DNA of 64,000 nt from the NCBI RefSeq assembly GCF_002214365.1, contig NZ_CP014854.1, positions 1,426,001 to 1,490,000 of the forward strand, read 5' to 3'. Origin of the DNA: Thermococcus celer Vu 13 = JCM 8558 (GTDB lineage Archaea > Methanobacteriota_B > Thermococci > Thermococcales > Thermococcaceae). Every line of letters begins with the position of its first letter. Position 1 is the first letter of the stretch. Below, one piece after another: positions 93-11,016 of this stretch. Both the position numbers and the translations under genes were made by a program. Under the pieces are notes generated by a model that did not search any database, was not told the origin of the DNA, and saw only the letters and a program-made list of their open reading frames with translations.

Positions 93-1621
93 TGCTTCCG
101 TACCTCATAGTAGTCCCGCTCCTTGGAGCGTTCGCGATGCCGATAATCGGTCTCCTCGGAGAGAAGGCCAGGGAGGCATGGGCTGTAGTAGTCACCGCCG
201 TCACCCTCGGCGTCGCCGTGGAAGTCTTCAACACGGTATGGCGGGGAGGTATACTGCTCTACACCCTCGGGGGAAAGGGCCCCCTCGGAAACGGGGTCTC
301 CTTCCCGGTAAGGATAGTCTGGGAGGTCGACCTGGTAAGTGCGCTCTTCGCCCTGATGGTGACCTTCGTCGCGTTCGTGGCGGTGCTCTACTCAACGGAG
401 TACATGAGGCACGACACGGGCCTCGAGAAGTACTACACCCTCGTTATCCTCCTCGAGGTCGGGATGCTCGGCATAGCGATAACCGGCGACCTCTTCAACT
501 TCTACGTCTTCCTTGAGATAATGAGCATAGCCAGCTACGCCCTCGTCGCCTTCAGGAACGACACCTGGGAGGGCATCGAGGCGGGCATAAAGTACATGTT
601 CGTCGGCTCTCTCGCCAGCTCCTTCGTCCTCCTCGGGATAGTGCTACTGTACGGGGAGTATGGAACGCTGACCATGGCCTACATAGCCAAGATGGTGGCC
701 GAGAACCCGACGTTCACAGCCAAGGTGGCCCTTGGATTTCTCATCGGCGGACTGCTGTTCAAGAGCGGCGCCGTTCCCGTCCATATGTGGCTCGCCGACG
801 CCCACCCTGCCGCGCCCAGCTCAATCAGCGCCATGCTCTCGGGCCTCGTCATCAAGATAGGGGGAACCTACGCACTGGCGAGGCTCGCCTTCAGCGTCTT
901 CAGCCTCGGAATAAACGTCAGGACGATGGGATGGGTGATAGTACTCTTCGCCTGCGCCACCCTGATAGCGGGCAACGCCATGGCCGTGGTTCAGACGGAT
1001 ATGAAGAGGCTCTTCGCCTTCTCCAGCGTGGGGCAGATAGGCTACATCCTCCTCGGGACGGGGATAGGCCTGGCCGCCTACGGGAGCGACGTCGGCAACC
1101 TCGCCCTCGCCGGGGCGATATACCACACCGTCAACCACGCGATTATCAAGGCCCTCCTCTTCCTCGTCGCGGGGGCCGTCATACATCAGATAGGAACGAG
1201 AAACCTCAACGAGCTGAGCGGTATAGCCAAGAGGATGCCCGTCACGAGCTTCGCCTTCCTCGTCGGCGCCGCGGCCATAATCGGCCTCCCCCCGATGAAC
1301 GGCTTCGCGAGCAAGTGGCTCATCTACGAGAGCTCCGCGCTCTTCAACCCGCTGGTGGCGGTCATAGCGGTGATAGGCACGGCCTTCAGTTTCGCCGCCT
1401 ACATCAGGGTGCTCTTCACGTTCTTTGGAAGGCCCAGCGAGAGGGTATTGACCGCGAGGGAGCCGGGGAAGGCCATGCTCGTGCCCATGCTCCTCCTCGT
1501 GGTGGCCATAATAATCATGGGCCTCTTCCCGTGGTACATCGGCGACAGGATCATGGTGCCCGCGGCGAAGACGCTCGAGAACACCGGCGCCTACATACTC
1601 GCCCTGACGGGGGGTGCGTGA
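89..1621 (+). CDS. mbhH: Membrane-bound hydrogenase subunit MbhH (MrpD/NuoN-like antiporter)
   Basis: A 510-residue polytopic membrane protein of the proton-conducting membrane transporter family (NuoL/M/N, MrpD). Visible hallmarks are the glutamate-containing helix with EIMSIASYALVAF (about 145-157), the loop with lysine and histidine in VHMWLADAHPAAPSSISA (about 231-248) and the later HTVNHAIIKALLF helix with charged channel residues. In the Mbh respiratory complex this subunit couples H2 evolution from ferredoxin to ion translocation, with the neighbouring Mrp-like subunits. The start is ATG at 89, overlapping the upstream stop by 4 nt. Gene order H-I-J-K-L-M-N matches the known mbh operon of Pyrococcus furiosus, so I prefer MbhH over a stand-alone Mrp antiporter. 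Confidence 0.93.
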   Translation: MMLPYLIVVPLLGAFAMPIIGLLGEKAREAWAVVVTAVTLGVAVEVFNTVWRGGILLYTLGGKGPLGNGVSFPVRIVWEVDLVSALFALMVTFVAFVAVLYSTEYMRHDTGLEKYYTLVILLEVGMLGIAITGDLFNFYVFLEIMSIASYALVAFRNDTWEGIEAGIKYMFVGSLASSFVLLGIVLLYGEYGTLTMAYIAKMVAENPTFTAKVALGFLIGGLLFKSGAVPVHMWLADAHPAAPSSISAMLSGLVIKIGGTYALARLAFSVFSLGINVRTMGWVIVLFACATLIAGNAMAVVQTDMKRLFAFSSVGQIGYILLGTGIGLAAYGSDVGNLALAGAIYHTVNHAIIKALLFLVAGAVIHQIGTRNLNELSGIAKRMPVTSFAFLVGAAAIIGLPPMNGFASKWLIYESSALFNPLVAVIAVIGTAFSFAAYIRVLFTFFGRPSERVLTAREPGKAMLVPMLLLVVAIIIMGLFPWYIGDRIMVPAAKTLENTGAYILALTGGA

Positions 1622-1622
1622 A

Positions 1623-1970
1623 ATGTTCGGCTACTGGGACGCCCTCTACTTCGTCTACGTTTTCACCCTGAGCCTGCTCATCTCGTACGCCGTCTACAAG
1701 TGGGCCGAGCGCTCGAGCGCGGGAACCAGGAGAACCGGCGATGGGGCGAAGATATTCCTCAGCGGTGAGGATCAGGACAACGTTGTCCCGCAGTTCGAGC
1801 ACTTCCGGGGCTACTTCACGGGCAGACACGTCATGTGGGGCCTCATAAGGGGAATCCACAGGCTCTTCCTCGTCCTTCGCAGGGAGCACACGGGACTTCT
1901 GAGCGACTACGTTAGCTACCTGCTCGTCACGACGGCGATAATAGTGGGAGTACTGATGGTGTGGGGGTGA
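1623..1970 (+). CDS. mbhI: Membrane-bound hydrogenase subunit MbhI
   Basis: A 115-residue small subunit with a transmembrane segment near the N-terminus (LYFVYVFTLSLLISYAVY) and a second hydrophobic segment at the C-terminus (YVSYLLVTTAIIVGVLMVW), separated by a charged stretch. MbhI links the antiporter-like and hydrogenase membrane modules of Mbh. I chose ATG 1623, just after the mbhH stop (1619-1621), because a GGGGTG Shine-Dalgarno lies upstream; a GTG at 1614 overlapping mbhH is the alternative. It sits in the fixed place between mbhH and the small hydrogenase subunit, which is the main support for the name. Confidence 0.88.
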   Translation: MFGYWDALYFVYVFTLSLLISYAVYKWAERSSAGTRRTGDGAKIFLSGEDQDNVVPQFEHFRGYFTGRHVMWGLIRGIHRLFLVLRREHTGLLSDYVSYLLVTTAIIVGVLMVWG

Positions 1971-8099: not shown

Positions 8100-8633
8100 A
8101 TGCCGAACTACGACGCCCACGTCCTGAGCGGGATAGTCTCCTATCCGCTCGCCGTTTTCCTCGCGTTCGCCCTCAGGGACCACTTAGGAGTTCCCTTCGT
8201 CCTCAGCACGACGGCGATGCTGGTGGGTTACGCGCTCTACGTCCTGGGGGCTGATCTGCCCGATATGGACCATCCCAACGCCCTGATACACAGGGGAACG
8301 AAGCCGATAGTGGCCGTGGCAACGGGGAGCGCGGTCTTCGTTCGGGCTCTCGGCTCCGTGAACCTCGGAAGCGAGTCCCTCAACGTTACCGCCGCGTGGG
8401 GGATGGCGGTGCTCGCCGCGGTGATAGCCTGGTACGGCTTCACCGCGATAATGCCAAAGCACAGGGGCATCGTCCACTCCCTCCTCTTCGCGGCGATGTA
8501 CGGGGTTCTCAGTTACGCCCTTGTGAAGTATGGCCTGGGCATGGCGACGGGCGGGGCCCTCTTCGTTGGCTTCGCGGCTTTCTGCGGCTACACACTGCAC
8601 CTGATACTCGACGGGGCGGTTTCCCTCGTGTGA
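8100..8633 (+). CDS. Membrane-bound metal-dependent hydrolase (YdjM/DUF457 type)
   Basis: A 177-residue protein with four to five hydrophobic segments and the family's metal ligands: an early histidine (NYDAHVLSG), LGADLPDMDHPNALIHRGT and KHRGIVHSLL, then HLILDGAV near the C-terminus. This H..DxDHP..HRG..HR-x-H pattern is that of membrane-bound metal-dependent hydrolases such as YdjM. The physiological substrate is unknown. It begins 4 nt after the AAA ATPase stop. Confidence 0.75.
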   Translation: MPNYDAHVLSGIVSYPLAVFLAFALRDHLGVPFVLSTTAMLVGYALYVLGADLPDMDHPNALIHRGTKPIVAVATGSAVFVRALGSVNLGSESLNVTAAWGMAVLAAVIAWYGFTAIMPKHRGIVHSLLFAAMYGVLSYALVKYGLGMATGGALFVGFAAFCGYTLHLILDGAVSLV

Positions 8634-8678
8634 GCGAAAGACTTATCACCCCCAAAGATAAGAAACCACGGTGGTTTC

Positions 8679-8927
8679 ATGGACGTGGGGGCAGTCGTTT
8701 TTCTCATCTTCCTCCTGATAGCCGCCGCCATAATGCTCCTCGCCTTCATGCTGGAAGAGAGTGCCCAGAAAAAGGCCGAGGGACTGAAGAACGCCGTGGA
8801 AATCCGGGATGACGAGGTGGTTCTCCCGCGGAGGATGAGGCTCACCAGGGGCCGGTTTTATCTCAGGGCTGTTTCTTGGTTGGTGGTTTTCGTAACTTTT
8901 GTTGTCTTTCATCACCGCAAGGTTTAA
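8679..8927 (+). CDS. Small membrane protein, C-terminus possibly altered by the TnpB element
   Basis: An 82-residue frame starting at ATG 8679. Residues 5-27 form a clear transmembrane segment, followed by a charged amphipathic part (ESAQKKAEGLKNAVEIRDDEVVLPRRMRLTRG). The final 20 residues come from T/G-rich DNA unlike the GC-rich upstream part, and the stop codon lies inside the TATA box of the inserted element (8923-8930). I therefore think the original gene continued and the present C-terminus is supplied by the mobile element. No family recognised. Confidence 0.55.
   Translation: MDVGAVVFLIFLLIAAAIMLLAFMLEESAQKKAEGLKNAVEIRDDEVVLPRRMRLTRGRFYLRAVSWLVVFVTFVVFHHRKV
8891..8902 (+). repeat. 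Left inverted repeat of the TnpB element
   Basis: CGTAACTTTTGT, a perfect 12-bp inverted copy of the sequence at 10272-10283. IS200/IS605 elements normally have subterminal palindromes rather than terminal inverted repeats, so this match is noteworthy. Confidence 0.7.
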
Positions 8928-8945
8928 ATACTACAACTTAGTATT
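8921..8945 (+). promoter_or_regulatory. Promoter and palindromic operator of the RHH-tnpB operon
   Basis: The TATA box TTTAAATA (8923-8930) overlaps a palindrome, AATACTA-CAACT-TAGTATT (8927-8945), with 7-bp perfect arms. The RHH start codon follows at 8965. A palindrome over the TATA box just upstream of a ribbon-helix-helix gene is the usual place for autorepression. That the RHH protein binds it is an inference. Confidence 0.65.
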
Positions 8946-8964
8946 CCCTTGACGGGTGTTAGTA

Positions 8965-9129
8965 ATGCCTAAAGCGACTTTTGTCATCGACAGTGAAACG
9001 CTTGAAGAATTCAAAAGGCTGGCCAAAGAACGCTATGGGAACAAGAGGGGAGTCCTAAGCATTGCAGTTGAGGAAGCGATAAAAGATTGGATTAAGAAAA
9101 CAAGAAAGGAACTGGAAAATGCCGAATGA
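8965..9129 (+). CDS. Ribbon-helix-helix (CopG/Arc-like) protein upstream of TnpB
   Basis: A 54-residue protein (MPKATFVIDSETLEEFKRLA...). The order beta-strand (KATFVID), helix (SETLEEFKRLAKERYG), turn, helix (VLSIAVEEAIKDWIKKTRK) is that of MetJ/Arc/CopG DNA-binding proteins. The reading frame ends with TGA at 9127-9129 and overlaps the tnpB start (9119) by 11 nt, so the two are co-translated. It has its own TATA box and a palindrome (8927-8945) nearby. It may be the repressor of the element, or an antitoxin-like relic; the short length and genetic layout favour the repressor. Confidence 0.75.
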   Translation: MPKATFVIDSETLEEFKRLAKERYGNKRGVLSIAVEEAIKDWIKKTRKELENAE

Positions 9130-10288
9130 AACGATAAAACTCACCGCAAAATTCAAGCTCAAAAACCCTCCAAACGGGTTAGACAACCTCATCCAAACTT
9201 ACCGTGAAATAGTGAACACCCTCATCACCCACGCTCACGAGAACAACATCACAAGCTTCTACCGGCTGAAAAAAGAAACGTACAAAAGCCTTCGCAAAGA
9301 GTATCCGGAACTACCAAGCCACTACCTCTACACGGCCTGCCAGATGGCGACGGCAATCTACAAGAGTTACCGCAAAAGAAACAAAAAGGGAAAAGCAAAG
9401 GGAAAGCCAGCCTTCAAGAAAGAAGTCATAATGCTCGATGATCATCTCTTCAAACTCGACCTCGACAGAAAAATAATAAAACTCTCCACTCCTAACGGGA
9501 GGATTTCCCTCGAGTTCTATCCCGCAAAGTACCACGAAAAGTTCAGGGGCTGGAAGGTTGGGCAGGCCTGGTTGGTTAAAACCCCAAAAGGCGTCTTCGT
9601 GAACGTTGTCTTTTCCACGGAAGTTGAAGCTCAGGAACCAAAATCCTTCGTCGGCGTTGACCTGAACGAGAACAATGTAACCTTAAGCCTTCCAAATGGT
9701 GAGTTCGTGCAAATCATCACTCACGAGCGGGAAGTCAGGACGGGTTATTACGTGAAGAGGAGGAGGATTCAGAGGAAGCTGAAGGCTGGAAAGAAACGGA
9801 AGAAACTCCTTGAGAAGTATGGGGAAAGAGAAAAGAACCGGCTGAATGACCTTTATCACAAGGTGGCTAATAAGATCGTCGAGCTGGCGGAAGAATACGG
9901 TGGGATAGCTTTGGAGGACTTGACGAACATTCGGGAGTCAATAAGGTACTCTGCCGAGATGAACGGGAGGCTTCACCGCTGGAGTTTTCGAAAGTTGCAG
10001 TCGATCATCGAGTACAAGGCGAAGTTGAGGGGTGTGAGTGTTGTTTTTGTTGATCCGGCTTATACTTCTTCCCGGTGCCCGGTATGTGGGGGGAAGTTAA
10101 GCCCGAATGGGTACCGGGGGGTGAAGTGTGAGTGTGGTTTTGAGGCGGATAGGGACGTTGTTGGGAGCTGGAACATCCGCTTGAGAGCCTTGAAGATGTG
10201 GGGAGTTTCCGTTCCCCCCGAAAGCCACTCGATGAAGATGGGAGGGTGGAAGGTTGGCCGTAACGATGTTTACAAAAGTTACGGCTAA
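9119..10288 (+). CDS. tnpB: TnpB, RNA-guided RuvC nuclease (IS605 OrfB)
   Basis: A 389-residue TnpB. The N-terminal REC/wedge part is followed by a split RuvC domain with all three acidic motifs intact: D181 (FVGVDLNENN), E266 (GGIALEDLTNI) and D346 (FEADRDVVGSWNI). A zinc ribbon has C320, C323, C337 and C339. Members of the family are omega-RNA-guided DNA endonucleases that maintain their element at the donor site. With the catalytic set complete, this copy is probably an active nuclease rather than a TldR-type exapted regulator. The last 250 bp are G/T-rich and end in a hairpin, consistent with embedded omega RNA. Confidence 0.93.
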   Translation: MPNETIKLTAKFKLKNPPNGLDNLIQTYREIVNTLITHAHENNITSFYRLKKETYKSLRKEYPELPSHYLYTACQMATAIYKSYRKRNKKGKAKGKPAFKKEVIMLDDHLFKLDLDRKIIKLSTPNGRISLEFYPAKYHEKFRGWKVGQAWLVKTPKGVFVNVVFSTEVEAQEPKSFVGVDLNENNVTLSLPNGEFVQIITHEREVRTGYYVKRRRIQRKLKAGKKRKKLLEKYGEREKNRLNDLYHKVANKIVELAEEYGGIALEDLTNIRESIRYSAEMNGRLHRWSFRKLQSIIEYKAKLRGVSVVFVDPAYTSSRCPVCGGKLSPNGYRGVKCECGFEADRDVVGSWNIRLRALKMWGVSVPPESHSMKMGGWKVGRNDVYKSYG

Positions 10289-10289
10289 C
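10253..10289 (+). ncRNA. Hairpin at the element's right end, likely part of the omega RNA scaffold
   Basis: GTTGGCCGTAAC (10253-10264) and GTTACGGCTAAC (10278-10289) form a 12-bp stem with one G-U pair and a 13-nt loop, spanning the tnpB stop codon. In IS605-type elements the omega (re)RNA overlaps the 3' end of tnpB and its guide begins immediately beyond the right end, here from about 10290. The hairpin is seen directly; its RNA function is inferred. Confidence 0.55.
10272..10283 (+). repeat. Right inverted repeat of the TnpB element
   Basis: ACAAAAGTTACG, perfect inverted copy of 8891-8902; it also forms part of the loop and 3' arm of the terminal hairpin. Confidence 0.7.
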
Positions 10290-10949
10290 CAGAACGGGTA
10301 CTGGTCGGGTAGCGGCAGGCACAGGCACTACCACGTTGAGAGGAGGTTCACCGCAGAAGGGGAGGTCGAGGCGGAGAGGATAAGGCTAAAGCCCGAGAGG
10401 TTCACGCTCATCGTGGCGCTGGACGGGAATGCCATGATAGACGTCCCGGCCTACCTCGTCCGCGAACCCGACTTCAAAGACGTCCTGCTAATCCCCGTAG
10501 TTCCATCCTACAGGTTCGAGCTCGAAAGGGATTCGCTCGAGGTATCTAAGGATATGGAGTTCGCCCACGCGAGGATGGAGGTGAAGGAGCGTGGAATCCG
10601 GGGCAGGCTGTACGCTACGGTTCAAAAATGCCGCGGGGCGAGGCTGGAGCTCAGAACCAGGAAGCCCGATGCCGTCGAGAAAATAGCCGAGACGAGGGAG
10701 AGCGCGGAGTTCAGCAGGGAGTTCCTGGGGGAGAAGCTCCTGATGGTCTCCCACGGGAAGGCCGCTGACCCGAGGCACTTCACCAGGCCCTTTGGAAGGA
10801 GGGTTCTGATCGAGGGCCACGGCGAGTACCCGGTGAGGTTAACCCTGGACGTTCCCCTCGGCAGGGACGTCCACGACGAGACCGTTCTGAGGGTGGAGCC
10901 CTCGGGCGAAATTCCGGAGGGAAGGCCCCGGGTCGAGGTTGTGGTCTGA
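10290..10949 (+). pseudogene. 5'-truncated host gene downstream of the TnpB element
   Basis: The open frame has no proper start beyond the element: the only nearby in-frame starts (TTG 10254, ATG 10266) lie within tnpB, and the next methionine is about 50 residues further in (10434). The remaining ~219 residues encode a beta-rich, charged soluble domain with no family that I recognise (GYWSGSGRHRHYHVERRFTAEGEVEAERIRLKPERF...). Codon use is that of the host. The membrane-anchored stub at 8679-8884 may be its lost N-terminus. If expressed at all, it would use a start inside the element. Confidence 0.55.
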
Positions 10950-11016
10950 CTACCCAGATTCGGGTGGTAATGTTTTTAAATAGTCAACCCGAGGTGGGAA
11001 AGCGGAGGTGGAGGAG

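What the first reader, a model, noticed from the sequence alone, without database searches (positions are those of the whole stretch)
8921..10289. TnpB element with its own ribbon-helix-helix gene and palindromic operator
A 54-aa RHH protein overlaps tnpB, and a 19-bp palindrome (AATACTACAACTTAGTATT) covers the TATA box of the operon. This is the arrangement of a self-repressing unit, which would limit expression of an RNA-guided nuclease in the host. TnpB keeps D181, E266 and D346, so control of an active nuclease makes sense.
Basis: partly seen in the sequence, partly recalled or inferred. Interest (0 to 1): 0.75.

Follow-up and report, generated by a model that had tools for sequence, protein, structure and literature searches.

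The report
Transposase-less TnpB element with own repressor
In heat-loving Thermococcus-type archaea, some mobile elements that carry the RNA-guided DNA-cutting enzyme TnpB have a tiny DNA-binding protein where the transposase gene should be, and that protein most likely switches off its own promoter so that the cutter stays at a low, safe level.

Summary
A 1,428-bp element (8868-10295) interrupts a host gene. It carries a 54-aa ribbon-helix-helix (RHH) gene (8965-9129) overlapping an intact tnpB (9119-10288), and a 19-bp inverted repeat (8927-8945) runs from the TATA box towards the transcription start. The element is an IS607 derivative: its ends match autonomous IS607 elements, but the RHH occupies the slot of the serine-recombinase tnpA. 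The genome has four such copies and one tnpA copy. Among 72 related tnpB loci in 94 Thermococcaceae genomes, 24 carry RHH, 44 tnpA and 4 neither; the two cassettes interleave on the tnpB tree. Related RHH genes also sit upstream of two other TnpB clades. RHH is under strong purifying selection (dN/dS 0.01-0.13). The right arm, TTAGTATT, is invariant in 17 aligned promoters of the main RHH type and absent from 20 tnpA promoters. Full 19-bp symmetry is kept in only about half of them, so the conserved part is TATA plus TTAGTATT, not a strict palindrome. Best reading: a CopG-like autorepressor holding down TnpB, and sharing control across copies. Repression itself is untested. Nothing in the paper library searched describes it. 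New variant of a known kind.

The parts
8679..8867 (+). 5' part of the host gene interrupted by the element; ends in the GG target (8866-8867)
   Evidence: Joined flanks align end to end with an uninterrupted gene in G071 (69%) and G038 (67%)
8868..10295 (+). Whole mobile element (IS607-derived, no transposase gene), GCTGTTTC...CAGAAC, flanked by GG on both sides
   Evidence: Copy comparison and empty-site alignment
8868..8908 (+). Left end, (GG)GCTGTTTCTTGGTTGG..., shared with autonomous IS607 tnpA-tnpB elements
   Evidence: Same terminal sequence in tnpA-type elements
8923..8930 (+). TATA box TTTAAATA of the RHH-tnpB operon
   Evidence: Sequence; conserved in RHH and tnpA types; start of transcription expected near 8953 (inference)
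8927..8945 (+). 19-bp inverted repeat AATACTACAACTTAGTATT, proposed operator
   Evidence: exactly four places in the genome, all at RHH promoters
8938..8945 (+). TTAGTATT, the invariant right half of the proposed operator
   Evidence: 17/17 aligned RHH1 promoters; 17/19 RHH-type vs 0/20 tnpA-type promoters, Fisher p 3e-9
8965..9129 (+). RHH gene, 54 aa, in the slot of tnpA
   Evidence: ORF, dN/dS, AlphaFold helices 10-24 and 30-53 at pLDDT 89.7, weak Pfam RHH_6/RHH_1
9119..10288 (+). tnpB, 389 aa, RNA-guided nuclease; translation start overlaps the RHH stop
   Evidence: NCBIfam guided_TnpB 4.4e-56, Pfam Cas12f1-like_TNB 4.4e-22, D181/E266/D346
10078..10295 (+). Presumed omega-RNA scaffold at the 3' end of tnpB and right end; guide would be the flank from 10296
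   Evidence: Sequence and compensatory pairing shared with ORF-less mini-elements; extent inferred
10252..10290 (+). Right-end hairpin GGTTGGCCGTAAC...GTTACGGCTAACC
   Evidence: Sequence; consensus fold
10296..10949 (+). 3' part of the interrupted host gene, begins with GG

Best explanation
This is a non-autonomous IS607-type element in which the transposase gene has been replaced by a small CopG-like RHH repressor. RHH dimers bind the promoter just downstream of TATA (core TTAGTATT/AATACTAA) and block RNA polymerase recruitment, so the operon represses itself. Because tnpB starts inside the end of the RHH gene, its translation is probably coupled to RHH. All copies in a genome make the same RHH and carry the same site, so total TnpB should stay low however many copies there are. 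Transposition depends on IS607 TnpA supplied in trans. Shown: gene order, ends, conservation, selection on RHH, and a promoter element specific to the RHH type. Inferred: binding, repression, copy-number buffering, translational coupling, and TnpB activity.
For: RHH under strong purifying selection, with dN/dS 0.01-0.13. RHH present in 24 of 72 related tnpB loci, always with the same overlap into tnpB, and upstream of two other TnpB clades. TTAGTATT in 17/19 RHH-type promoters vs 0/20 tnpA-type promoters of the same element family, lying between TATA and the expected start. The palindrome occurs four times in the genome, only at RHH promoters. A sister RHH lineage (58% identity) on the same tnpB has different dyads, AAGTTTATAAACTT over TATA and GCCATATGTATGGC, so the promoter sequence tracks the RHH subtype rather than tnpB. 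A 50%-identical RHH precedes the primase-polymerase gene of plasmid pTI1, a CopG-like layout.
Against: The 19-bp symmetry is only kept in about half of the promoters; others have AATATT on the left, and the spacing to TATA varies by 1 bp. In isolation the palindrome is weak (p about 0.07). No palindrome enrichment in RHH promoters of the other two TnpB clades. The RHH assignment rests on sub-threshold profile hits and a monomer model. No expression or binding data.
Confidence: 0.7

Rival explanations
1. Toxin-antitoxin-like pair: RHH binds and neutralises TnpB protein, as VapB-type antitoxins neutralise PIN toxins, with autorepression as a side effect.
For: RHH relatives in other archaea precede PIN-domain toxin genes (L292, L294, L296, L301); fixed linkage to three TnpB clades.
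Against: Those antitoxin-like relatives are 80-104 aa with a C-terminal extension; the TnpB-linked ones are 51-57 aa with none. The conserved tail ELENAE overlaps the tnpB start, so its conservation may be nucleotide-level. tnpB thrives without RHH next to tnpA.
Confidence: 0.1
2. RHH regulates something else (host genes, or autonomous IS607 copies), and TTAGTATT is a core promoter feature rather than its operator.
For: TTAGTATT lies where promoter-proximal AT-rich elements lie; left arm is plain TATA in many copies.
Against: TTAGTATT is absent from tnpA-type promoters of the same elements (0/20), and the palindrome occurs nowhere else in the genome.
Confidence: 0.12
3. RHH is a passenger or recombination relic kept because the left-end module is mobile, without regulatory role.
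For: Leader plus RHH is nearly identical among the four local copies (0-2 differences in 210 nt) while tnpB differs by up to 105 in 1,111, so the module moves by recombination; frameshifted RHH copies exist in G076.
Against: dN/dS 0.01-0.13 at near-saturated synonymous sites and retention in complete genomes that lack this tnpA (G014, G020, G033, G092).
Confidence: 0.06

Closest known systems
IS607 family elements (tnpA serine recombinase + tnpB)
   Same: Same LE (GGGCTGTTTC), RE, GG-flanked insertion, tnpB 75-92% identical and the same overlap of the upstream gene into tnpB
   Different: No tnpA; an RHH gene and an RHH-type promoter in its place
IS1341-type / tnpB-only elements
   Same: tnpB without transposase, presumably moved in trans
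   Different: These lack an accessory regulator; here a conserved RHH gene precedes tnpB
CopG-type RHH autorepressors of plasmid rep operons
   Same: Small RHH encoded first in the operon, with its proposed site at the operon promoter; a 50%-identical relative is first in the rep operon of Thermococcus indicus plasmid pTI1
   Different: Controls a TnpB nuclease in a transposable element instead of a replication protein
Aca repressors of anti-CRISPR operons (PMC9410906)
   Same: Small autorepressor limits a mobile-element gene
   Different: HTH proteins, usually encoded downstream, in phages and plasmids

Membership tests
IS607 family | Serine recombinase TnpA encoded in the element | tested here: not met
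   No tnpA between 8868 and 10295; the only such tnpA copy in this genome is at G000:89412-90017
IS607 family | Shared ends, GG-flanked insertion, no target duplication beyond GG | tested here: met
IS607 family | tnpB of the IS607-associated subfamily | tested here: met
   92% identical to the tnpB of the autonomous copy; interleaved on one tree
TnpB (OMEGA) RNA-guided nucleases | Split RuvC triad and zinc-binding domain | tested here: met
   D181, E266, D346; CPVC...CECG; guided_TnpB 190.8 bits, cut-off 100
TnpB (OMEGA) RNA-guided nucleases | omega-RNA encoded at the 3' end | tested here: inconclusive
   Conserved structured 3' region with compensatory changes in mini-elements; no Rfam hit in 8600-11000; no RNA data
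TnpB (OMEGA) RNA-guided nucleases | RNA-guided DNA cleavage | not testable with these tools
   Needs biochemistry
RHH (CopG/Arc/MetJ) superfamily | Strand plus two helices, profile match | tested here: inconclusive
   Below Pfam gathering score (RHH_6 E 0.0014-0.05); AF2 helices 10-24 and 30-53; Foldseek top hits not significant but include RHH folds (PrpA, MatP, ParD); 50%-identical homologue annotated RHH
CopG-like autorepressors | Dedicated site at own promoter | tested here: met
   RHH-type-specific TTAGTATT; four genome sites, all at own promoters
CopG-like autorepressors | Symmetric operator conserved | tested here: not met
   Arms of 6-7 bp kept in about half of RHH1 promoters; left arm often AATATT
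CopG-like autorepressors | Represses its own transcription | not testable with these tools
   Needs EMSA or a reporter
Type II toxin-antitoxin | Antitoxin with toxin-binding extension | tested here: not met
   51-57 aa without extension vs 80-104 aa in PIN-linked relatives

The most novel reading that the evidence does not exclude
A distinct class of selfish element: the transposase gene has been exchanged, repeatedly and in more than one TnpB clade, for a copy-number-sensing RHH repressor. The element then persists mainly through tightly regulated TnpB, which is also shared in trans with ORF-less mini-elements that carry only a promoter, an omega-RNA and their own guide.
Probability: 0.35. 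Interest if true: 0.78.

Novelty: new variant of a known kind. Interest (0 to 1): 0.6.

Why it matters
How host-toxic RNA-guided nucleases of transposons are kept in check is largely unstudied. A dedicated repressor fixed in the operon, swapped into the transposase slot and shared by three TnpB clades, gives a directly testable control circuit. It would explain how multicopy TnpB elements stay tolerable, and it parallels plasmid copy control and anti-CRISPR repressors. It could also provide a natural, heat-stable off-switch for TnpB expression.

Tried and rejected
Rfam search of 8600-11000: nothing. Palindrome as the IS200/IS605 left-end hairpin bound by a Y1 transposase: rejected, because the ends and companion tnpA are IS607 (serine recombinase) and tnpA-type copies lack the repeat. 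RHH acting on autonomous IS607 promoters: not supported (0/20 have TTAGTATT). Strict palindrome conservation across relatives: not found. General palindrome enrichment in RHH promoters of the other two TnpB clades: not found. Half-site enrichment there is weaker (ATACTA 13/31 vs 3/23) and partly confounded by shared leader sequence. Structure of the clade-3 TnpB-like protein: low confidence (pLDDT 51.6), although its best Foldseek matches are Cas12f-type proteins. Same RHH in phages: none; plasmids: one, pTI1. Literature: no paper held links TnpB or IS607 with an RHH gene; three papers contain both terms. Of these one was read, and its two mentions are unrelated.

Full report
What is there. 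Positions 8868-10295 are a mobile element inserted into a host gene. Joining the flanks restores continuous alignment to an uninterrupted gene in two other species of the same genus, allowing for the GG bases at the junction. The element holds, in order: a left end beginning (GG)GCTGTTTC; a TATA box TTTAAATA (8923-8930); the inverted repeat AATACTA-CAACT-TAGTATT (8927-8945); a 54-aa ORF (8965-9129); tnpB (9119-10288), whose start codon lies inside the end of the small ORF; and a right-end hairpin finishing AACCAGAAC(GG).

The element is an IS607 derivative. The genome has four copies with RHH and one copy (G000:88254-90017, minus strand) with the same ends and a 92%-identical tnpB, but with an IS607 serine recombinase tnpA in place of the RHH gene. 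In 94 Thermococcaceae genomes the same subfamily gave 72 tnpB loci long enough for a tree: 44 with tnpA, 24 with RHH (14 genomes, three genera), 4 with neither. On the tnpB tree the labels interleave: RHH needs 13 changes, at least 8 of them forced by well-supported branches. Yet the RHH proteins are one family, 78-85% identical to the window's, plus a second lineage at 58-60%. The upstream cassette and tnpB therefore recombine. In this genome, leader plus RHH differ by 0-2 of 210 nt between copies, while tnpB differs by 22-105 of about 1,110. Four essentially complete genomes (G014, G020, G033, G092) keep RHH-tnpB without any tnpA of this type. IS607 transposition needs only tnpA (PMC6188088), so these elements must be moved in trans or be stranded.

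The small protein. Profile hits to RHH families are below threshold. The AlphaFold monomer has helices 10-24 and 30-53 at mean pLDDT 89.7 after an N-terminal stretch of the right length for the DNA-contacting strand. Foldseek matches are not significant, but RHH folds are among the best. A 50%-identical plasmid homologue is annotated as ribbon-helix-helix. Selection is clear: dN/dS 0.01-0.13 where synonymous sites are near saturation.

The proposed operator. In 17 aligned promoters of the main RHH type, TTAGTATT is invariant and lies between TATA and the expected start, near 8953 (start site inferred). It is in 17/19 RHH-type promoters and 0/20 tnpA-type promoters of the same elements (Fisher p 3e-9). 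The two RHH-type exceptions belong to the divergent RHH lineage and instead have AAGTTTATAAACTT over TATA and GCCATATGTATGGC. In the window's genome the inverted repeat occurs exactly at the four RHH promoters and nowhere else with up to one mismatch. Against a simple palindrome: the left arm is AATACT in about half of the promoters and AATATT or AATATC in the rest, and the spacing changes by 1 bp in a few. The single-promoter shuffle p is only about 0.07. The conserved entity is TATA plus TTAGTATT. A second half-site may be imperfect or lie elsewhere; in L098, for example, CCACTTAG/CTAAGTGG forms a dyad on the other side.

A wider pattern. Weaker RHH relatives (39-53% identity) overlap by 4 nt the start of a second, distinct TnpB family of about 437 aa. 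This family also has many RHH-less copies (31 RHH vs 23 RHH-less promoters compared, a few of the 31 being decayed). A third RHH group overlaps a TnpB-related protein of about 355 aa (TIGR01765 E 2.6e-21), at 12 loci, mostly one per genome, with intact RuvC-like D, E and D in the nine proteins aligned. Outside Thermococcaceae the nearest RHH relatives found precede PIN toxins or other genes, not tnpB. The TnpB-linked proteins lack the C-terminal extension of the PIN-linked ones, which argues for a plain repressor rather than an antitoxin. The plasmid relative, directly upstream of a primase-polymerase, gives the closest working analogy: CopG-type copy control.

Interpretation. Most likely the RHH is an autorepressor that keeps TnpB low, with probable translational coupling through the overlap. 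Identical RHH and operators in all copies would make total output insensitive to copy number. Binding, repression and nuclease activity are inferences. TnpB making its own omega-RNA from its mRNA is established elsewhere (PMC10278001), so repression here would lower protein and guide together.

Novelty. Searches of the held literature found no link between TnpB or IS607 and an RHH gene. That covers open-access papers only. I rate it a new variant of a known kind: a known type of regulator in a known type of element, in a combination and position that appear undescribed.

Noticed in passing
G000 loci L006-L013 (e.g. L006 about 1350-1690, minus strand): Eight ORF-less mini-elements: seven of eight have the IS607-type left end, a TATA-like box, a compact omega-RNA-like scaffold with compensatory hairpin changes (CCACCC/GGGTGG vs CCCTCC/GGAGGG), the same right end and a unique flank that would serve as guide; they look like stand-alone guide-RNA elements using TnpB in trans.
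   Followed up: partly
L226-L232, L236-L240: RHH gene overlapping a TnpB-related protein of about 355 aa with conserved RuvC-like D, E and D, mostly one copy per genome in 11 genomes; possibly a domesticated TnpB.
   Followed up: partly
L101-L103 and L104 (G076): Four near-identical RHH-type copies share the same 1-nt RHH frameshift, so loss of RHH seems to precede their amplification.
   Followed up: no
window 8909-10240 compared with L002-L004: tnpB of the four local copies is a patchwork, with stretches of 80% and 100% identity alternating, while leader and RHH are nearly identical: recombination between copies.
   Followed up: partly
L304 (Thermococcus indicus plasmid pTI1) 1-3341: RHH 50% identical to the window's directly precedes the primase-polymerase gene, a CopG-like layout.
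   Followed up: partly
L285, L287, L289 (Terraquivivens, Nitrososphaeria, Bathyarchaeota): RHH overlapping a 330-344-aa protein that looks by eye like a DNA methyltransferase.
   Followed up: no
window 8679-8867 and 10296-10949: The insertion breaks a host gene (N-terminal membrane segment, about 290 aa) that is intact in several other species of the genus.
   Followed up: yes
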